NCBI GenBank assembly: GCA_021647705.1
Contig: JAKIUF010000011.1
Coordinates: 1-64,000 of the forward strand
Source: Gammaproteobacteria bacterium
Lineage (GTDB): Bacteria; Pseudomonadota; Gammaproteobacteria; SZUA-152
Direction of reading: 5' to 3'
Length of the DNA stretch: 64,000 bases
Below are positions 32,623 through 42,924 of this stretch, one piece after another. The first letter of the stretch is position 1; each line of letters starts with the position of its first letter. The position numbers were made by a program, and so were the translations under genes. Below the pieces are notes generated by a model. That model worked only from the letters and a program-made list of their open reading frames with translations. It did not search any database and was not told the DNA's origin.

Positions 32623-33603
32623 GTGGCTAGTTCTGAACAAATAAAAGCACTATTACTTTCGCATCTCGCAAAGGATGAGGAGCGCTTTTTGTCTGTTGCT
32701 TTACAAATGGCAGCACACGAGGCTCGCAGCGGACACGGCAAACTCGCCCAAGAGCTGAGAGAAATCGTCGATAAAGCCAAAAAACAAGGCAAATCCAGTC
32801 CACCTGTCCCAATATCCAAAGGATTAAAAGACTCGTCAGGATTGTTGTATGCGACAACCCCTCATTTTCGACTGACAGACTTAATCACTAAAAATGATGT
32901 CACAGACAAGCTTGTTCGTGTCATCCGCGAACAGCGTCATATCAGCAAATTAAAAAATCACGGCCTTTCACCCAGGCGCAAGCTGCTGCTTGTCGGTCCG
33001 CCTGGCACGGGGAAAACATTCACCGCATCGGTGTTGGCCAGTGAGCTGGGCTATCCGTTATTTCAGGTCAGGCTGGATGCTGTGATCACTAAATTCATGG
33101 GCGAATCATCGGCAAAACTTAGACAAGTCTTTGATGCCATTCGTGAGGTAAGAGGCATCTATTTTTTTGATGAATTTGATGCGCTTGGTTCTCAGCGGAC
33201 AACACCCAATGATGTTGGCGAAGCAAGACGGATACTGAATAGTTTCTTACAGATGATTGAACAAGATGATTCCAACAGCGTCATTATCTGCGCCACCAAC
33301 CACGCTGAAATTTTGGATTATGCTTTATTTCGGCGTTTTGATGATGTTATTCAATATCAACTACCCGAAAAGAGCGAGATTGTTATCTTACTCAAAAACA
33401 GACTTCAACCCTATGTCACAAAAAGATTTCCGTGGTCCAACCTTGCAACCAAAGCGATAGGACTCAGCAGCGCAGAAATCACGCTTGCTGCCGAAGATGC
33501 TATCAAAGAACTGCTTATTCACGAATACAAAACAATCAGCCCCAACATCATTGAACTTGCCATTAATGACCGTCGTGAAATGAGCTATCAAAAACACCGA
33601 TAA
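32623..33603 (+). CDS. ietA: AAA-family ATPase, IetA-type
   Basis: The 326-aa ATPase has an N-terminal helical segment (about 1-60), then an AAA domain with Walker A GPPGTGKT (125-132), pore-loop-like KFMGESSAKLR, Walker B IYFFDEFD (D183, E184), sensor-1 ICATN and sensor-2/arginine-finger region ALFRRFDD. The architecture matches FtsH/CDC48-like ATPases encoded next to subtilases. The IetA/IetS pair is known from Agrobacterium plasmids as a stability module and as an anti-phage system. It starts with GTG and ends 9 nt before the protease. It is named by pairing and domain content, not by alignment. Confidence 0.8.
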   Translation: MASSEQIKALLLSHLAKDEERFLSVALQMAAHEARSGHGKLAQELREIVDKAKKQGKSSPPVPISKGLKDSSGLLYATTPHFRLTDLITKNDVTDKLVRVIREQRHISKLKNHGLSPRRKLLLVGPPGTGKTFTASVLASELGYPLFQVRLDAVITKFMGESSAKLRQVFDAIREVRGIYFFDEFDALGSQRTTPNDVGEARRILNSFLQMIEQDDSNSVIICATNHAEILDYALFRRFDDVIQYQLPEKSEIVILLKNRLQPYVTKRFPWSNLATKAIGLSSAEITLAAEDAIKELLIHEYKTISPNIIELAINDRREMSYQKHR

Positions 33604-33612
33604 GGAGACAGG

Positions 33613-36114
33613 GTGACTGATCGAAAGGACGCGAAACCACATTTTTTTCTTGGCCGAACAGGCAAGCCTGAATTATACACCTACAGCGGTGGAGGTGGTG
33701 GTGAGAAACCTCTAATCCCAGAGAAAAATAGACAGCAGCACGGCTCAAGACTTCTTGGGCAACTTCAACAAATCCAAACTGATCAACAGGAACTCAAAAC
33801 TGAGGCATCAGACTACCCGTTGGAGTCTGTAATAGGCATACAGATAGAGTTCGAAAGCTTTCCTGATATAGCACTTGCTGTTGAAAGTCTCGCAAACGAG
33901 ACGCACAAAATTGAACTGTTAAATGTAACCCATCGTAACGATACAACCTTCGCGACTATTTTTGTGCCTGAAGGCAAACTGTCAGCTTTTGAGAAAAAGC
34001 TACGTGACTACCTTTCTGAGAAAAAGAACAAAAATGGCGGTGCGATTGATAATCGCCCGTTGATTGATGCCATACGGTCATTTAGAGTGGCCGCGCTAGA
34101 AGCCCTTTGGACAGATGACATCGATCAACTACCTGAAGATTCCGAACAAAGTTTTTGGTGGGAAGTATGGTTGCCAGTCCGAGGAAATAGGCAAGGTGTT
34201 CTCCATGACTTTACTTTGTTAGCAAGTGCTATAGAGATCGAGGTATCACCGCAATCACTGCATTTTCCAGAAAACTCCGTGCTACTCGCCAAAGGTAATC
34301 GCCGTCAGTTTTCACAAAGTGGTTTATTGCTAAATACCATTTCAGAGCTACGCAAAGCAAAAGAGACTGCTGCCTTTTTTGATGAAATACCAGCCAATCA
34401 GCAGCATGAATGGACAGATGAACTACTAAGCCGTGCTTCATTTTCAAAGGCCACGGATACAACGCCCTACGTATGTATTTTGGATACAGGTGTCAACAGA
34501 GGCCACCCATTGCTAAGCCCCATCATTGGCACTAAAGATCAGTTTTCTCTTGATGGTGCGTGGGCTGCTACAGATGATGATGGTCATGGAACGGGCAGCG
34601 CGGGTTTAGTTGCTTGGGGTGATTTAACCTCTGTGCTTGATAGCGATTCCATGATCGAAATAGATCATCGTTTAGAGTCTGTAAAAACACTACGCCATCA
34701 TGGGGACAACGAAGGAAAACACCTTGGCATCGTTACCGCCGATAGTATTTCCCTGCCTGAAATCGAAAACCCGTTTCGAACAAGAGTCTTCTCAATGGCA
34801 TTATCCGCAACGGATGCCAGAGACAGAGGCAGACCATCGGCCTGGTCTGCGGCAATAGATAGTTTATCGGTAGACTATCTGGGTGAAAATGAAAAATCCC
34901 GGATCATCGTGCTATCGGCAGGCAATGTCAGTGATAGCCTAAACGATATGACTGAATACCCTGACTACAACGTATTACAAGATGTGCATGATCCAGCTCA
35001 GGCATGGAACGCGATCACCGTTGGGGCATACACGGAAAAGGTAACGATCACTGAAGACGACTGCTCCAACTACACAGCACTTGCCCCTCTCGGAGGTCTA
35101 TCCCCCCATAGCACCACATCGACTACATGGGAGCCATCCACCCCGATCAAACCAGAGATTGTATTTGAAGGTGGAAATGTAGGTATCGACCAGCATAGCT
35201 GTGCATCCATTCCGAGCTTATGCCTGTTAACCACGCACAATGAGATTACCACAAGACTATTTTCCACTTTCCATGCAACAAGCGCGGCTACCGCGCTGGC
35301 CAGTCGGTTCGCGGCTGAAATATATGTTCAGTATCCGAAGCTCTGGCCAGAAACGGTTCGGGCGCTAATGGTTCATTCAGCACAATGGACTGATGCCATG
35401 TGTGAACAATTTTCACATGGAAACACACCACACCAACAAGCCCAACACCGTGTTCGCTGCGTAGGGTTTGGTGTACCCAATTTAGAACGCGCTCTTTGGA
35501 GCGCCAACAATTCACTCGCGCTGGTGATAGAAGATCAATTACAGCCCTTTGATAAAATCAAAGGCAAGCCAGTTGCCACGAGGGATATGCACCTGCATGA
35601 CCTGCCTTGGCCGAAGGAGTCACTCCTTGAGTTAGGCGAAACGAATGTTGAGATGACAGTCACTCTCTCTTATTTCATCGAACCCAACCCATCTAGCCGA
35701 GGCGTAAAGGGTAAATATAGCTACCCCAGCCACCATCTTAAGTTTGACGTAAAACGTGCCACTGAGTCTTTGGATGATTTCAGGAAACGTATTAACCGTC
35801 GGGTGTTAGATGCAGAAGGAGGAGAAAAACCAAGTAAAACCACCGACCCAAATTGGCTTCTTGGATCGCAATTTCGACATAAAGGCTCAATCCATAAAGA
35901 TGTATGGAGTGGTACCGCAGCAGATTTGGCAGAGCGCGGAAAAATTGCTATATACCCTGCCATTGGTTGGTGGAAAACAAGAACGAAGTTAGAGCGCTAT
36001 AACAAGTCGGCACGATATGCCTTGATCGTTTCCATTTCGGTACCCGACGTGAAAACAAATATCTATGACGAAGTCTTTAACCAACTGGAAATTGAACAAC
36101 TCATTGAAGTGTAG
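33613..36114 (+). CDS. ietS: Subtilisin-like serine protease, IetS-type
   Basis: The 833-aa cytosolic S8 peptidase has no signal peptide. An about 280-residue N-terminal region precedes the catalytic triad Asp291 (CILDTGVNRGHPLL), His325 (DDDGHGTGSAG) and Ser557 (HATSAATALASRF). A beta-rich C-terminal domain of about 220 residues follows. The start is GTG 33613 with AAGGAGA upstream. In IetAS the protease is the toxic effector and the ATPase is thought to control it. The arrangement fits: ATPase first, 9-nt gap, same strand. The primase-helicase begins 15 nt later. Confidence 0.83.
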   Translation: MTDRKDAKPHFFLGRTGKPELYTYSGGGGGEKPLIPEKNRQQHGSRLLGQLQQIQTDQQELKTEASDYPLESVIGIQIEFESFPDIALAVESLANETHKIELLNVTHRNDTTFATIFVPEGKLSAFEKKLRDYLSEKKNKNGGAIDNRPLIDAIRSFRVAALEALWTDDIDQLPEDSEQSFWWEVWLPVRGNRQGVLHDFTLLASAIEIEVSPQSLHFPENSVLLAKGNRRQFSQSGLLLNTISELRKAKETAAFFDEIPANQQHEWTDELLSRASFSKATDTTPYVCILDTGVNRGHPLLSPIIGTKDQFSLDGAWAATDDDGHGTGSAGLVAWGDLTSVLDSDSMIEIDHRLESVKTLRHHGDNEGKHLGIVTADSISLPEIENPFRTRVFSMALSATDARDRGRPSAWSAAIDSLSVDYLGENEKSRIIVLSAGNVSDSLNDMTEYPDYNVLQDVHDPAQAWNAITVGAYTEKVTITEDDCSNYTALAPLGGLSPHSTTSTTWEPSTPIKPEIVFEGGNVGIDQHSCASIPSLCLLTTHNEITTRLFSTFHATSAATALASRFAAEIYVQYPKLWPETVRALMVHSAQWTDAMCEQFSHGNTPHQQAQHRVRCVGFGVPNLERALWSANNSLALVIEDQLQPFDKIKGKPVATRDMHLHDLPWPKESLLELGETNVEMTVTLSYFIEPNPSSRGVKGKYSYPSHHLKFDVKRATESLDDFRKRINRRVLDAEGGEKPSKTTDPNWLLGSQFRHKGSIHKDVWSGTAADLAERGKIAIYPAIGWWKTRTKLERYNKSARYALIVSISVPDVKTNIYDEVFNQLEIEQLIEV

Positions 36115-36128
36115 CGCCAACCTTTCAG

Positions 36129-38483
36129 ATGACACATGAATTACATTTTCTCCGCGCCGAGAATGCCCGCCTGATTACACTGCTTGAATCACACGGTATT
36201 GAATGGCGCTTACCACAAACTCTACCCTTTGCACCTGATACCGAATCCTCTTCATTCACTACCAAAGAAAAAATAGCACTTTTTTGTCGCCTTTTTCGGG
36301 GTCGGGAAGATGTTTATCCTGTTCGCTGGGAAAGCAAGGCAGGTAAATCAGGCTATTCCCCAGCGTGTGCCAATGAATGGAAATCAGGTATCTGCGAAAA
36401 GCCGCGCATCAAGTGTGCTGATTGCTCCAATCGCTCACTAATCCCGCTGACCGACCAGACCCTTTTTGACCATCTTGCAGGAAATCATACTATTGGAGTT
36501 TACCCGCTATTAACAGATGACCGTTGTTATTTTCTCGCCGTTGATTTTGATAAAGCGGATTGGCGTGAGGATGCCTGTGCCTTTGTGCAATCATGCCAGG
36601 AGCTGGATGTGCCTGCTGCTCTGGAAATTTCCCGTTCCGGCAATGGTGCTCATATCTGGGTCTTTTTTTCCTCCTCTGTTTCTGCCAGTGATGCGCGGCG
36701 ACTGGGTACGGCGATCATCAGTTATACATGCCATCGTACCCGACAACTTGAGTTGGGTTCTTATGATCGTTTGTTTCCGAATCAGGATACGATGCCAAAG
36801 GGTGGTTTTGGTAATCTGATTGCGCTGCCGTTACAAAAACGGCCTCGTGAGCATGGGCGTAGCGTATTTGTCGATGACAAGCTACAGCCTTACCCCGATC
36901 AGTGGGCTTTTATTGCCTCGATACAATCCATGAGCCTTCCGGATCTGGAAGCAGTCATATTGCTTGCTACAGGCAACAAACATCCACTGGATGTAACGTT
37001 TATCAGTGATGAAGATCAGCAGGAACCCTGGAGACGACCAGCTTCGGCATCAAAAAAAATAATGGATTCTATACCGGAGTCGCTGACGATCACGTTGGCA
37101 AATCTCATCTATTTTGAAAAGGAACAGCTTCCACAATCCCTGGCCAATCGGCTGATTCGTTTGGCAGCATTCCAAAATCCGGAATTCTATAAGGCACAGG
37201 CCATGCGTTTTCCTGTTTGGGATAAACCCAGAATCATCGGGTGTGCGGAGAATTACCCCAGACATATTGCCTTGCCTCGTGGTTGTCTGGAGGCTGTTCA
37301 AAAGCTGTTGCATGAAAACAATATTCACTGTGAGTTGCAGGATAAGCGTTTTGTGGGTGACACTATTGATATCAATTTTGAAGGCACGCTTCGCGCAGAC
37401 CAGAAAAAAGCGGTTAACGCCATGCTCAAACATGATGTGGGTATCTTGTGCGCCCCGACGGCTTTCGGGAAAACGGTCACAGCGGCCTCGCTCATTGCTC
37501 GCAGAGGTGTCAATGCTTTGATTTTAGTGCATCGTACTGAACTATTGAAACAGTGGCAGGTGAGGTTACAGTCATTTCTTGACATAAAAAAAGGTGTCGT
37601 CGGCACAATGGGGGGAGGCTCAGTAAAGCCCACTGGTGTCATCGATATAGCCGTCATGCAAACACTGACACGCCGGAAAGAACTCCGTGACAAACTGGAA
37701 CATTATGGGCATGTCATTGTTGATGAGTGCCACCATCTCTCGGCATTTTCTTTTGAGGCGATTCTTAAACACACCAAAGCAAAATATGTGTTGGGCCTGA
37801 CAGCAACACCTGTGCGTCGTGATGGCCAGCAACCCATTATCTATATGCAGTGCGGCCCAATTCGTCACACGGCAACCACGCCAGAAAATGCTCCTAAAGA
37901 ACTGGAGGTAACGCCACACTATATTTCCTCGGATATCGATGTCGTTCCTGATGCTCGCATACAGGATATCTTTCGTCATTTATCAGAAAATACGCATCGA
38001 ACCACAGAAATTGTTACCCACATTGCGAACCTTTATGCGCAAGGGAGAAAAGTGCTTGTATTGACGGAGCGTACTGACCATCTGGCTGCCATTGGTGATG
38101 CGCTGGCCCCGCTTGTTCCGAGTTTTTATAGGTTGCACGGACGCATGTCAAAAAAACAGCGTTCTACGGTAATTGCTGAACTGGATGCCTTGCCTGATGA
38201 TGCTCCACGCATCCTGCTGGCAACGGGGAAACTGGTCGGGGAAGGTTTTGATCATCCTCCACTGGATACTCTGATACTTACCATGCCGATTTCCTGGAAA
38301 GGCACGCTACAGCAATATGCCGGGCGATTACATCGTCAACACAGTTCTAAAACAGATGTAAAAATTATCGATTTTGTTGATACCGGTCATTCGGCATTAT
38401 TGAAAATGTGGGATAAACGTCAGCGTGGTTATCGGGCAATGGGGTATTGTATTACCGTTGGCAATACCTTCAAATCCAGGTGA
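36129..38483 (+). CDS. TOTE-type archaeo-eukaryotic primase / SF2 helicase fusion
   Basis: The 784-aa protein has a short N-terminal coiled coil (LRAENARLITLLESHGI) and a primase-polymerase (AEP) domain with a zinc-binding Cys cluster (CANEWKSGICEKPRIKCADC) and catalytic D139-F-D141 in FLAVDFDK. SRSGNGAHIWVFF follows. Then comes a superfamily-2 helicase: Walker A APTAFGKT (K448), DECHH (532-536), GLTATPVRRDG, and motif VI QYAGRLHR. This matches the AEP-helicase of TOTE conflict systems, inferred to act on foreign nucleic acid. Its 15-nt distance from ietS suggests one operon. No nuclease domain is evident. Confidence 0.85.
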   Translation: MTHELHFLRAENARLITLLESHGIEWRLPQTLPFAPDTESSSFTTKEKIALFCRLFRGREDVYPVRWESKAGKSGYSPACANEWKSGICEKPRIKCADCSNRSLIPLTDQTLFDHLAGNHTIGVYPLLTDDRCYFLAVDFDKADWREDACAFVQSCQELDVPAALEISRSGNGAHIWVFFSSSVSASDARRLGTAIISYTCHRTRQLELGSYDRLFPNQDTMPKGGFGNLIALPLQKRPREHGRSVFVDDKLQPYPDQWAFIASIQSMSLPDLEAVILLATGNKHPLDVTFISDEDQQEPWRRPASASKKIMDSIPESLTITLANLIYFEKEQLPQSLANRLIRLAAFQNPEFYKAQAMRFPVWDKPRIIGCAENYPRHIALPRGCLEAVQKLLHENNIHCELQDKRFVGDTIDINFEGTLRADQKKAVNAMLKHDVGILCAPTAFGKTVTAASLIARRGVNALILVHRTELLKQWQVRLQSFLDIKKGVVGTMGGGSVKPTGVIDIAVMQTLTRRKELRDKLEHYGHVIVDECHHLSAFSFEAILKHTKAKYVLGLTATPVRRDGQQPIIYMQCGPIRHTATTPENAPKELEVTPHYISSDIDVVPDARIQDIFRHLSENTHRTTEIVTHIANLYAQGRKVLVLTERTDHLAAIGDALAPLVPSFYRLHGRMSKKQRSTVIAELDALPDDAPRILLATGKLVGEGFDHPPLDTLILTMPISWKGTLQQYAGRLHRQHSSKTDVKIIDFVDTGHSALLKMWDKRQRGYRAMGYCITVGNTFKSR

Positions 38484-38608: not shown

Positions 38609-39313
38609 TTAACGCCGTTGCGGTTCGCTCCACCAGTTAGGGGAGATTTCATAAATTTCAGTCTGCTTGCCGAGTCGTTTAACCAGGTTTAAAGCCGCCA
38701 TGCCGGGCTCACTTTTTACGACGATGGTTAAACCATCACCGGGCAAGCTGCGCTCTTTCAATAAGTTGTGCTGGGTCAGCCAGATATGAATGTTCTCCAC
38801 TGCCATATCTGATTGAAAGCGGATGATGACGTTGCCGGGCAGTGCCATGCGGGGTGAGTTGGGACGGGGGGAGCTGTGAAAGACTGGTGATACGTTGGGA
38901 CTCCGTTTTGCATTTGCAGCAGCACTGGCGCTGTCTGCAAGTGATTTGCTAACAATGTTCTCCACTTGCTGTGGCTCTGCTCGCCATATGGTGGTTATGC
39001 CGTGTGTTTTGACTTGTTGACTGTTGGCGTTGCGCAAGGCAGTGGTTGATTTGAGCTGTTCTGCGGCGTTGTTATTCGGTACATAAAATTCTGCATACTC
39101 TTCGGGATTGAGCCAACTGGTGATATCCCGTTTGCCATTGTTCCAGGTAATTGCTTTCCACGAATTTGACTGGGTTGTGTTCGTGATGCTTTTACTCACT
39201 GTTTCCCCTTTAGTGGGGGGATTGCTGTAGCCCAGAGTGGCAAAAATAGCGAGGGAGGCCACTGCTGTTATCACAATATAGCGTTTTGTTAATGCGGGTT
39301 TGTACTTATTCAT
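38609..39313 (-). CDS. Exported stand-alone subtilase-prodomain-like protein
   Basis: From ATG 39313 (GGAG about 9 nt before) the protein is 234 aa. It has a signal anchor (YIVITAVASLAIFATLGYS), a long polar low-complexity region, and a C-terminal domain from about residue 160. That domain, VIIRFQSDMAVENIHIWLTQ..LPGDGLTIVVKSE..YEISPNWW, has the rhythm of subtilase propeptides that end 'P-N'. It lies 27 nt after the stop of the secreted protease gene, which itself has no prodomain. I infer that it is the folding chaperone or inhibitor supplied in trans. No other domain is seen. Confidence 0.6.
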   Translation of the reverse strand: MNKYKPALTKRYIVITAVASLAIFATLGYSNPPTKGETVSKSITNTTQSNSWKAITWNNGKRDITSWLNPEEYAEFYVPNNNAAEQLKSTTALRNANSQQVKTHGITTIWRAEPQQVENIVSKSLADSASAAANAKRSPNVSPVFHSSPRPNSPRMALPGNVIIRFQSDMAVENIHIWLTQHNLLKERSLPGDGLTIVVKSEPGMAALNLVKRLGKQTEIYEISPNWWSEPQRR

Positions 39314-39340
39314 ATTTATAGGCTCCGGCAGCAATAGGTT

Positions 39341-41797
39341 TTAGTGGCCATAAAACTTAAGCCCCCAGGAGGTAAATGTGCCTGTGTCACTCGATGTTTT
39401 ATCGGAAACCTTGAGGGTCCAAGTGCCGGCGCTGTTCTCGCCTAAATGGCGGGCGCTGCCAAATACCCAGCTATTGTAGTTACTACTGCAAGGAGTAGGG
39501 TTGAGGCGGTGGAGGCAGCCATGTTTTTCGGCCAGAACGCTTGTTGTTCCAGAGGGGCTGGTGAGTTCCACTCTGAGGTCGCCGTGGTAGGTGTGATTGG
39601 CACTGAAGGTAATTTCGATAAATTCAATACTCATGCTGCTATCGATGACGATACTGTTGCTGACGCCCGTGAGATTGTTATCAGGAATACTGGTAGCAAC
39701 AGAGCGTACGCCGCTGTTAAAAGTGCGTTCAGGGCCGATATTGCTCCAGGTTCGGCTGGTTGTAACAGCGGTAGCGGCGTCAACCACACCAAACCCGTAT
39801 TTATGGTTAAAGTTGTAGACTGGCGTGCCAGCGGTCACTTCCCAGTCGGTATCGGCCGGATCATTTTTGCGTGCTGTCTGCGCCAGTATCAGGCGTACAT
39901 CGCGCCAGCCTAGATTGGGGTTGGTTTGCAGCATTAGGGCAATAACCCCGGCTGCGAGGGGGGCAGATGACGAAGTGCCAATAAACGTTTTGGTGTAATT
40001 TTTGTCAGCGTAATCGTTAGGGCTGTTGTTGGTATTCAAGCCCTGATCTCCTCCTCCGCTGCGATCAGTGGTGGTAATGCTTTGCTCATTGTTTTCGAGG
40101 TTACCGCCTGAAGGGGCGCAGATCCACAGGTTGGCACCATTTTCTGAATAAACAGCTTGCTGACCTCTATCGTTAGTGGCACAGACAGCGATGACATAAC
40201 GATTATTAGCAAACGCATCATAATTTGAATTGTCGACGCCATTGGGGTTGCCGTACCGAAGGCTTGCACCATTGCCAGCAGCCCAGGTGTAGATGGTACC
40301 AAGACCACCACGACCATCAGTTGTGCCCGTTTGTAAGCTATTGAGCCAGCCGGCAGGCGGAGGAGGGCTTAGTTCGCCGGTATCATCCGTAGGTCCCCAA
40401 CTGTTATTGGAGATGGCGACATTGCTGATATTTCTGGTCATGGCATCAAGGGCATTGACCCCGGTAAGGTTACTGATCAGGTTAAACCCGGCTATGGAGG
40501 CTTGAGGAGCACTGCCTCGTACGCCCAGGCCGTTGAAGTCACGTGCGGCAATGACGCCTGCGACCAAGGTACCGTGGTAGTGATCGCTACACTGGGTGGG
40601 TGTATTTGCCAGATCATTGTCATTGTCACAGTAGTCGTAACTCTGACCAGCCAGGATATTGGTGGCCAAGTCTTCATGCTCTACTTCCAGGCCGTCATCA
40701 ACGACTCGGATATTAACGCCTGCGCCTTTGGTTTTGGTGCCAGTGGTGGCATTAATTACCGTGTTCCAAGCGGTTTCTACGTTGATATCTTCACCACTGA
40801 CACCACTATTTTGGCCACTGTTTTTAAGGTGCCATTGTTTATCATAAAGCGGGTCGGCGATGCTGGTGATGGTGGTGGTGTCGGCGGTACTGTCGATGAG
40901 GCCGTCGTTGACGATCAGTTCTAGTACATAGGCACCATCGACATCGGGGGTGAACGTGGGTTTGGCGATGACCATACTGCTCAGATTGATATTGCTGATA
41001 GCGGGTTTGCTAACAATGGACCAGCGGTAGGTAATGGGGGCGGGACTGTTGTCAGCATCATTGCTGCCGGAGCCATCGAGCTGCACCTGTTGCAGGGTGA
41101 TTGAGTTTTGATCAGGGCCAGCATTGGCAACCGGTTTCATATTGGGCGTGCTGGTAATGGTGACGGTGTCTGTTGCGTTGTTATCAGGTATGCCATCGTT
41201 GACGGTGAGTTTCAGTACATAAGTGCCATCGATGTCGGGAGTGAAGGTAGGGTTGACGATTGTGGCATCGCTGATATTGGCGGTACTGCCCGCAGGGCGG
41301 TTGTCGATGGCCCAGGCATAGGCGAGCGAATTGTTTTCAACATCACTGCTGCCGGAACCATTGAGCTGTACCTGCCGCAGGGTAATTACGTTCTGGTCTG
41401 AACCGGCATCAGCGACAGGGGGCGTATTCGTGCTGGTGACGGTGACGGTGTCTGCAATACTGTTGGTGATGCCGTCATTGACAATGAGTTGCAACGTATA
41501 AGTACCATTGCGCTCGGGAGTGAAAGTGGGGTTGACGATGGCCGCATCATTCAGCGTGGCGGTACTGTTTGTGGGGCCAGTGATGGTCCAGGCATAGGTG
41601 AGTGTCGCGTTTTCAACATCACTGCTGTCGGAGCCATCGAGCTGTACCGGTTGCAGGGTAGTTGCATTTTGATTAGGCCCGGCGTTGGCGACAGGGGCTA
41701 TATTGGCGCTATCTCCTTCTTCAATGTTTTCACCACAAGCACTTAGTAACAGAAATAAAGAGATAACAACACGTTGAGTCCATTTTGTTGACAACAC
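39341..41797 (-). CDS. Lipoprotein with three PKD domains, subtilase (kexin-like) and P domain
   Basis: The 818-aa protein has a signal peptide with lipobox LLSAC (Cys21). Three tandem PKD/Ig-like repeats of about 93 residues follow (35-123, 127-216, 221-311), each starting PVA(N/D)AG.DQN. The S8 peptidase has Asp367 (VVDDGLEVEHEDL), His408 (DHYHGT), Asn509 and Ser609 (GTSSSAP). The C-terminal P/homoB domain (about 690-818) includes HTYHGDLRVELTSPSGT and GTWTLKVSD. It is probably anchored in the outer membrane or surface-exposed and cleaves proteins. GTG start with AAAGGA upstream. Followed by the prodomain-like gene. Confidence 0.92.
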   Translation of the reverse strand: MLSTKWTQRVVISLFLLLSACGENIEEGDSANIAPVANAGPNQNATTLQPVQLDGSDSSDVENATLTYAWTITGPTNSTATLNDAAIVNPTFTPERNGTYTLQLIVNDGITNSIADTVTVTSTNTPPVADAGSDQNVITLRQVQLNGSGSSDVENNSLAYAWAIDNRPAGSTANISDATIVNPTFTPDIDGTYVLKLTVNDGIPDNNATDTVTITSTPNMKPVANAGPDQNSITLQQVQLDGSGSNDADNSPAPITYRWSIVSKPAISNINLSSMVIAKPTFTPDVDGAYVLELIVNDGLIDSTADTTTITSIADPLYDKQWHLKNSGQNSGVSGEDINVETAWNTVINATTGTKTKGAGVNIRVVDDGLEVEHEDLATNILAGQSYDYCDNDNDLANTPTQCSDHYHGTLVAGVIAARDFNGLGVRGSAPQASIAGFNLISNLTGVNALDAMTRNISNVAISNNSWGPTDDTGELSPPPPAGWLNSLQTGTTDGRGGLGTIYTWAAGNGASLRYGNPNGVDNSNYDAFANNRYVIAVCATNDRGQQAVYSENGANLWICAPSGGNLENNEQSITTTDRSGGGDQGLNTNNSPNDYADKNYTKTFIGTSSSAPLAAGVIALMLQTNPNLGWRDVRLILAQTARKNDPADTDWEVTAGTPVYNFNHKYGFGVVDAATAVTTSRTWSNIGPERTFNSGVRSVATSIPDNNLTGVSNSIVIDSSMSIEFIEITFSANHTYHGDLRVELTSPSGTTSVLAEKHGCLHRLNPTPCSSNYNSWVFGSARHLGENSAGTWTLKVSDKTSSDTGTFTSWGLKFYGH

Positions 41798-42015: not shown

Positions 42016-42924
42016 TTAATTTTTTTTGTGGGTTCTGTGCAATTGTTGTCGAAACAGTTCCATCAATATTTCAATATTGGTGGTGCCTGCATAATTCAGG
42101 CGGGTAATAAAAGCGATTTTCCGGTGTGGCCCCGGTTCATTCAGATGAACGGCCTTTATTTCGGCATTGTCATTAATCAACTGGCTCAATGCCATTTCCG
42201 GCACCAAAGTGGTACCCATATGGCCAGCGACCATTTGCACCAGGGTATTCAGGCTGGTGCCTGACAGGGAGTATTTTGTTTCGACGGGCCGGAATTTACA
42301 CGCGGCGAGGGCGTGGTCTTTCAAGCAATGCCCGTCTTTCAATAGCAGCAGCGGGGCTTCTTGCAATTGCTCACCGGTAATTTCGCAATGATCGGCCAGC
42401 TTGTCCGAGCGATGAGTGACGACAAAAAAGTCCTCTTCCCAAAAGGTGAAGGCATGCAAGCCTTCAATCGCATAAGGCAATGCCAGTATGGCGGTATCAA
42501 GGTCACCTTTTCTGACTTTTTCTACTAACACATTTGACTGTTCTTCAGTAATTGTGAGCTGAAAATCCGGGTACTGCTTTCTGACCTCCGGTAATACCTT
42601 CGGCAGCAAATACGGTCCGATGGTGGGAATAACGCCCAGTGACATTGGATAAGAAAGTGGCGCATTCTGGCTCTGACACAATTGATACAGTTCATTAACC
42701 TCCAGATTGATCGCGCGTGCCTTGTCCAGGATCATTTCGCCGACTGGCGTGACCAATACCTTCTTGTTATTGCGTTCGAAGATTTGTGTTCTGAGCTGGC
42801 TTTCCAGTTCGGATATGGCTGTGCTCAGGGCTGACTGGGAAACAGAGCAAAGTTCAGCCGCTCGTTTGAAATGCCGGGTTTTGTCAACCGCCAGGGCGTA
42901 ACTCAGCTGTTTGATAGTAATCAT
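42016..42924 (-). CDS. oxyR: Hydrogen-peroxide-inducible regulator OxyR
   Basis: A LysR-type regulator of 302 aa with N-terminal HTH (HFKRAAELCSVSQSALSTAISELE). The two redox cysteines are in LLLKDGHCLKDHALAACKF at 200 and 209, the same nine-residue spacing as E. coli Cys199/Cys208. Peroxide forms the disulfide and turns on genes such as catalases, two of which lie 10-14 kb upstream. It stands 38 nt after plsC on the opposite side of no other regulator and shares the minus strand. Confidence 0.95.
   Translation of the reverse strand: MITIKQLSYALAVDKTRHFKRAAELCSVSQSALSTAISELESQLRTQIFERNNKKVLVTPVGEMILDKARAINLEVNELYQLCQSQNAPLSYPMSLGVIPTIGPYLLPKVLPEVRKQYPDFQLTITEEQSNVLVEKVRKGDLDTAILALPYAIEGLHAFTFWEEDFFVVTHRSDKLADHCEITGEQLQEAPLLLLKDGHCLKDHALAACKFRPVETKYSLSGTSLNTLVQMVAGHMGTTLVPEMALSQLINDNAEIKAVHLNEPGPHRKIAFITRLNYAGTTNIEILMELFRQQLHRTHKKN

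What the first reader, a model, noticed from the sequence alone, without database searches (positions are those of the whole stretch)
38609..41797. Secreted protease with its prodomain in a separate gene
The PKD3-S8-P-domain lipoprotein has no recognisable N-terminal propeptide. A second exported protein encoded 27 nt downstream ends in a domain with the pattern of subtilase prodomains (VIIRF..., ending ISPNWW). A prodomain supplied in trans would act as folding helper and timed inhibitor.
Basis: partly seen in the sequence, partly recalled or inferred. Interest (0 to 1): 0.72.

Follow-up and report, generated by a model that had tools for sequence, protein, structure and literature searches.

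The report
Protease with separately encoded folding helper
A furin-like bacterial protease anchored to the membrane lacks the built-in folding segment these enzymes normally carry, and the gene right behind it encodes that segment as a separate exported protein; this arrangement was known from one studied enzyme, Aeromonas ASP with its helper ORF2, and here it is shared by a much wider group of bacteria.

Summary
The protease (39341-41797, minus strand) has a lipobox, three PKD domains, a kexin/furin-type S8 catalytic domain and a P-domain, with no propeptide between PKD3 and the catalytic domain. Twenty-seven nt downstream, 38609-39313 encodes an exported 234-aa protein. Its C-terminal domain (residues about 157-234) is predicted with high confidence as a subtilase prodomain. 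A profile of 24 homologues aligns end to end with fervidolysin-type cis prodomains (hhalign probability 97.7), and three homologues pass the Pfam PF22148 cut-off. The closest solved folds are subtilase prodomains and inhibitors, including ORF2 of Aeromonas sobria.

The known precedent is ASP-ORF2. The window pair belongs to a different, broader branch: 23 adjacent pairs, one unlinked pair and one relic where both genes decayed together. All 22 checked proteases lack a cis prodomain, and nearly all carry a lipobox. ORF2 ends in Arg/Lys in 21 of 22 members; the exception (Leu) pairs with the only protease whose S1-pocket Asp is Ser. Co-duplicated paralogues keep their partners.

Best explanation: a steric foldase plus temporary product-like inhibitor acting in trans. 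New variant of a known kind. Docking and foldase activity are inferred, not shown.

The parts
39341..41797 (-). Propeptide-less kexin-like S8 protease lipoprotein: signal peptide and lipobox, 3 PKD domains, S8 catalytic domain, P-domain
41731..41797 (-). Lipoprotein signal peptide of the protease (MLSTKWTQRVVISLFLLLSAC), lipobox LSAC
   Evidence: sequence; lipobox present in nearly all relatives
39344..40867 (-). S8 catalytic domain plus P-domain; kexin/furin-like; S1-pocket Asp in NYD and TTD motifs; starts directly after PKD3
   Evidence: (Z 50.0 furin, 48.7 Kex2, 41.2 ASP)
38609..39313 (-). ORF2-like exported helper protein, 234 aa from ATG at 39313, 27 nt after the protease stop
38612..38845 (-). 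C-terminal fervidolysin/I9-type prodomain of the helper (residues ~157-234), ending PNWWSEPQRR; C-terminal Arg predicted to sit in the protease S1 pocket
38876..39157 (-). N-terminal degenerate prodomain-like beta-alpha-beta-beta-alpha-beta domain of the helper (residues ~53-146)
   Evidence: model; the cis counterpart in L053 spans the same two regions

Best explanation
The pair is a split kexin-like protease. The protease is made and exported as a lipoprotein without a prodomain. The neighbouring gene makes the missing pro-region as a separate exported protein, a remote counterpart of the Aeromonas ORF2 external chaperone. After export its C-terminal prodomain packs on the S8 catalytic domain and templates folding. 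Its C-terminal tail (PNWWSEPQRR) lies in the substrate groove with the terminal Arg in the acidic S1 pocket, like a product of cleavage after a basic residue. It thus holds the protease inactive until the helper is degraded or released, leaving active protease on the membrane. Shown: gene layout, absence of a cis propeptide, prodomain homology and predicted fold, conserved pairing, co-duplication, co-loss, conserved basic C-terminus. Inferred: docking, foldase need, inhibition, timing.
For: No cis propeptide: kexin similarity starts right after PKD3; in relatives the lipobox is sometimes only about 12 residues from the catalytic domain (L013). Prodomain identity: PF22148 passes its gathering cut-off in homologues L021, L022, L019; 24-member profile vs 28 cis prodomains, hhalign probability 97.7, E 1.5e-12, 79 columns end to end, against at most 1.6 for 40 column-shuffled controls; model with pLDDT 93-97 in the domain, and about 16 of the top 23 VIA matches are subtilase prodomains, inhibitors or ASP ORF2 (3wqb_B: Z 6.0, 91 of 99 residues). 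Fused counterparts: L053 and L052 carry a profile match directly N-terminal to S8 in one polypeptide. Pairing: 23 adjacent loci, gaps -17 to 189 nt where measured; in the class survey every protease above 400 bits has an adjacent ORF2. Co-duplication in G224 and G097 with matching paralogue clusters. Joint decay in G002. ORF2 C-terminus basic in 21 of 22; the sole Leu (L015) pairs with the sole Ser at the S1 Asp column. Experimental precedent: ASP needs ORF2, whose C-terminal Lys lies at the active site and which inhibits with IC50 84 nM (PMC5638518).
Against: The window protein itself scores no Pfam match even at E 1; its prodomain status rests on homologues, profile and model. Z values are 6-7, below the level the tool regards as distinctive, and Foldseek alone gave no match under 0.001. 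Sequence profile comparison with ASP-type ORF2 is weak (probability 32, though above all 40 shuffled controls). The fused catalytic+ORF2 model has pTM 0.70 and no interface readout, so docking was not demonstrated. The S1/C-terminus correlation rests on two events.
Confidence: 0.85

Rival explanations
1. The second protein is only a stand-alone protease inhibitor (I9-like, as POIA1) that guards the cell against the protease; the protease folds by itself.
For: The fold also matches the inhibitor POIA1 (1v5i, Z 6.3); inhibition and chaperoning share the same surface; at least one S8-P protein in alphaproteobacteria (L092) starts almost at the catalytic domain and has no ORF2-like neighbour annotated.
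Against: All checked proteases of the group lack a cis prodomain while the helper is nearly always kept next to them; cis relatives carry the same region as their own pro-region; the experimentally studied relative needs ORF2 to become active (PMC5638518).
Confidence: 0.1
2. The second protein is an unrelated exported ferredoxin-like protein with another function (for example substrate recruitment or surface assembly), and the prodomain resemblance is a common-fold coincidence.
For: The ferredoxin-like fold is common; structural Z below 8; no Pfam match for the window protein itself.
Against: Sequence-profile match to cis prodomains far above shuffled controls; PF22148 gathering cut-off passed by homologues; prodomains heavily enriched among best structural matches; conserved basic C-terminus at the place of the pro/catalytic junction.
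Confidence: 0.04

Closest known systems
Aeromonas sobria serine protease (ASP, 3hjr/3wqb) with external chaperone ORF2 (PF18492; 2mk4, 3wqb_B)
   Same: Kexin-like S8 plus P-domain protease without propeptide; helper encoded just downstream on the same strand; helper exported, prodomain-like fold, basic C-terminal residue (Lys in ASP ORF2); protease domain Z 41.2 to 3wqb_A, helper Z 6.0 over 91 of 99 residues of 3wqb_B.
   Different: Helper not matched by PF18492 and only weakly by profile; helper longer, with an extra N-terminal prodomain-like domain; protease is a lipoprotein with PKD or other N-terminal domains instead of a free secreted enzyme; different and wider set of organisms.
Fervidolysin-type cis prodomain (PF22148) of S8 subtilases
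   Same: C-terminal domain of the helper aligns end to end (probability 97.7).
   Different: Normally N-terminal to the catalytic domain in the same polypeptide; here a separate, downstream gene.
Proprotein convertase/kexin prodomain and subtilisin prodomain (9fid_D, 1spb, 3cnq)
   Same: Same fold over the whole domain; ends in a basic residue as kexin/furin prodomains do; S1 pocket Asp conserved in the protease.
   Different: Cis-encoded and cleaved off in those; here never covalently joined.
Lipase-specific foldase (Lif), from general knowledge
   Same: Works like it: steric chaperone encoded just downstream of its exported enzyme and often membrane-tethered (several helpers here look like lipoproteins).
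   Different: No sequence or fold relation was tested; Lif is not a prodomain.

Membership tests
ASP/ORF2-type external-chaperone protease pair | Kexin-like S8 catalytic domain plus P-domain | tested here: met
ASP/ORF2-type external-chaperone protease pair | No N-terminal propeptide in the protease | tested here: met
   Kexin similarity starts directly after PKD3; relatives with as few as about 12 residues between lipobox and catalytic domain
ASP/ORF2-type external-chaperone protease pair | Chaperone gene directly downstream, same strand | tested here: met
   27 nt gap in the window; 22 of 23 adjacent pairs in this order
ASP/ORF2-type external-chaperone protease pair | Helper shares the fold of ORF2 | tested here: met
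   3wqb_B Z 6.0, rmsd 2.6, 91 of 99 residues; modest Z, tied with other prodomains
ASP/ORF2-type external-chaperone protease pair | Protease domains of both kinds form one clade | tested here: inconclusive
   Tree holding them together has higher likelihood than the free search, p-AU 0.71; not rejected, not proven
ASP/ORF2-type external-chaperone protease pair | Protease requires the helper for folding; helper inhibits | not testable with these tools
   Needs expression; known for ASP (PMC5638518)
Pfam PF18492 (ORF_2_N) | Match above gathering score | tested here: not met
   No match for the window helper; best homologue E 0.092, below cut-off
Pfam PF22148 (Fervidolysin_NPro-like) | Match above gathering score | tested here: inconclusive
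   Not for the window protein; yes for homologues L021, L022, L019 in the same domain
Kexin subfamily S8B | Catalytic triad and S1 acidic residues of kexin/furin conserved | tested here: met
   kexin alignment

The most novel reading that the evidence does not exclude
Propeptide-less kexin-like lipoproteases with a trans-encoded prodomain form a widespread lineage with perhaps a single origin of the split. ASP, cited as the exception among subtilases, would be one branch of it, and ORF2 chaperones would be true detached fervidolysin-type (tandem) prodomains whose C-terminal residue co-evolves with the protease S1 pocket.
Probability: 0.6. Interest if true: 0.55.

Novelty: new variant of a known kind. 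Interest (0 to 1): 0.45.

Why it matters
[quoted passage not shown] Here the split arrangement is a lineage trait across many gammaproteobacterial genera, with a recognisable sequence link between the trans helper and ordinary cis prodomains. It supplies natural paralogous pairs within one genome to test partner specificity, an unlinked pair, fused relatives, and a testable prediction that the helper's last residue reads out the protease's P1 specificity.

Tried and rejected
Direct Pfam, NCBIfam and PDB sequence searches with the helper alone found nothing; profile searches of PDB with A1 and A2 gave only chance matches. PF18492 in 369 class genomes: none, and no control genome rang, so absence is not shown. 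A SeqA-based attempt to find an Enterobacterales centre failed; 'of' does not accept plasmid loci. hhalign against a single Vibrio ORF2 was not significant. Fold of catalytic domain plus helper as one chain (the TAA between the two in-frame genes read as Gly, as the tool permits) was meant to show docking; the tool returns no interface data and pTM 0.70 is ambiguous, so I draw no conclusion on docking from it. Foldseek alone gave no match under 0.001 for the helper. Plasmid search with a relative's helper: no match. The JBC 2015 paper on the ASP-ORF2 complex is not held; its content is taken from PMC5638518.

Full report
WHAT IS THERE. On the minus strand the window encodes an 818-aa protein (39341-41797) with lipobox LLSAC, three PKD domains, a subtilase S8 domain and a P-domain. 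Its nearest solved relatives by sequence are kexin and furin, then the Aeromonas sobria serine protease ASP, and similarity starts at residue 309-314, immediately after PKD3. Mature kexin and furin begin there only after their propeptide has been cut off, so the window protease has no propeptide. The catalytic triad and both S1-pocket Asp columns are kept. Twenty-seven nt behind its stop codon starts a 234-aa protein (ATG 39313, end 38609) with an N-terminal export segment. No terminator-like site was found on this strand between or within the two genes.

THE SECOND PROTEIN IS A PRODOMAIN. Alone it matches nothing in Pfam or PDB by sequence. In three homologues the C-terminal domain passes the gathering cut-off of Fervidolysin_NPro-like PF22148. 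A profile of this domain aligns end to end with 28 PF22148-positive regions taken mostly from long single-chain proteins of the same class: probability 97.7, E 1.5e-12, while 40 column-shuffled controls reach at most 1.6 and the reversed alignment 1.1. The AlphaFold2 model of the helper has pLDDT 93-97 in the C-terminal domain, with order beta-alpha-beta-beta-alpha-beta. Among 999 PDB chains re-aligned, the best rows are mostly subtilase prodomains and I9-type inhibitors (EpiP 7.1, PC1/3 prodomain 6.8, POIA1 6.3, prosubtilisin 6.2) and ASP ORF2 (3wqb_B, Z 6.0, 91 of 99 residues). The Z values are modest and this fold is common, so the weight lies on the agreement of sequence profile, structure and context. 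The N-terminal half is a second, degenerate beta-alpha-beta-beta-alpha-beta domain.

FUSED COUNTERPARTS. Two S8-P proteases of the class, L053 (G075) and L052 (G153), have a match to the helper profile directly in front of the catalytic domain of the same polypeptide; in L053 the match spans both halves of the helper. The helper therefore corresponds to the pro-region of ordinary relatives, and its C-terminus corresponds to the junction with the catalytic domain.

THE PAIR IS A UNIT. Twenty-three loci have an adjacent pair: 22 with the protease first and one (L026) with the helper first; measured gaps range from -17 to 189 nt. From the protease side, in 369 sampled genomes of the class every protease above 400 bits has an adjacent helper; L047 (295 bits) has one, while L046 (303 bits) has none and carries what looks like its own cis prodomain. 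Genome G070 has two tandem propeptide-less proteases on one contig and a single helper on another: a natural unlinked case, if the assembly is right. In G002 the locus, next to a LysR-type gene similar to the window's neighbour, holds a 107-aa relic joining a piece of the protease and a piece of the helper: both decayed together. In G224 (three pairs) and G097 (two pairs) protease and helper paralogues fall into the same two clusters, so they duplicated as pairs. The overall distance correlation (r 0.86) is confounded by species history. In 22 of 22 relatives examined there is no prodomain before the catalytic domain, nearly all have a lipobox, and the linker can be as short as about 12 residues.

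MECHANISM. In ASP-ORF2 the helper is needed for maturation, its C-terminal Lys lies at the catalytic centre, and it inhibits the enzyme with IC50 84 nM (PMC5638518). In the window family the helper ends in Arg or Lys in 21 of 22 adjacent members with a complete end. The one exception, L015 (Leu), pairs with the only protease of this set whose S1 Asp (NYD motif) is Ser; the Vibrio campbellii ORF2 (Gln) also pairs with a non-Asp enzyme at that column, where the alignment is less sure (one-sided p 0.0085 over 27 pairs, not corrected for relatedness). This fits a product-like tail in the S1 pocket. I infer: export of both proteins, packing of the prodomain on the nascent catalytic domain, folding, inhibition by the tail, then release or degradation of the helper. 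Not shown here: docking, need for the helper, inhibition, and the trigger for release.

WHAT IS KNOWN. The arrangement is known from Aeromonas, with related operons noted in Vibrio, Shewanella, Chromobacterium and Pseudoalteromonas (PMC5638518); a 2022 survey treats ASP as the exception among subtilases (PMC9549277). The Vibrio campbellii pair found here carries the Pfam ORF_2_N helper. The window helper is not matched by that family, and the profile link is weak though above controls (probability 32, controls at most 1.1). In a catalytic-domain tree, ASP-like and window-like proteases can be held as one clade without loss of fit (p-AU 0.71), so a single origin of the split is possible but not proven. 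Three further ASP-like proteases (L051, L054, L060) also have an ORF downstream that resembles an exported helper by eye; two of them end in Lys or Arg.

VERDICT. It is a new variant of a known kind: a broad lineage of membrane-anchored, propeptide-less kexin-like proteases with a trans-encoded prodomain.

Noticed in passing
window 32623-36114 (+): AAA ATPase and subtilase pair matching IetA (E 7.9e-68) and IetS (E 1.6e-38), a known anti-phage system.
   Followed up: partly
window 36129-38483 (+): TOTE-type archaeo-eukaryotic primase plus helicase (PF22548 E 2.6e-103, ResIII) directly after IetAS: a small defence cluster beside the protease pair.
   Followed up: partly
window 42016-42924 (-): LysR-family regulator that looks like OxyR (two Cys spaced as in OxyR, by eye) directly upstream of the protease; a similar gene flanks the decayed locus L007.
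   Followed up: no
L007 1248-1568: Relic ORF joining parts of the protease and helper in a same-genus genome; both genes decayed together.
   Followed up: partly
L026 (G218): The only pair with the helper gene before the protease gene, overlapping it.
   Followed up: no
L048, L058 (G070:C43) and L020 (G070:C1): Two tandem propeptide-less proteases and one unlinked helper in one genome: a natural one-helper-two-clients case.
   Followed up: partly
L051, L054, L060: ASP-like proteases followed by very divergent helper-like ORFs outside both PF18492 and the window family.
   Followed up: partly
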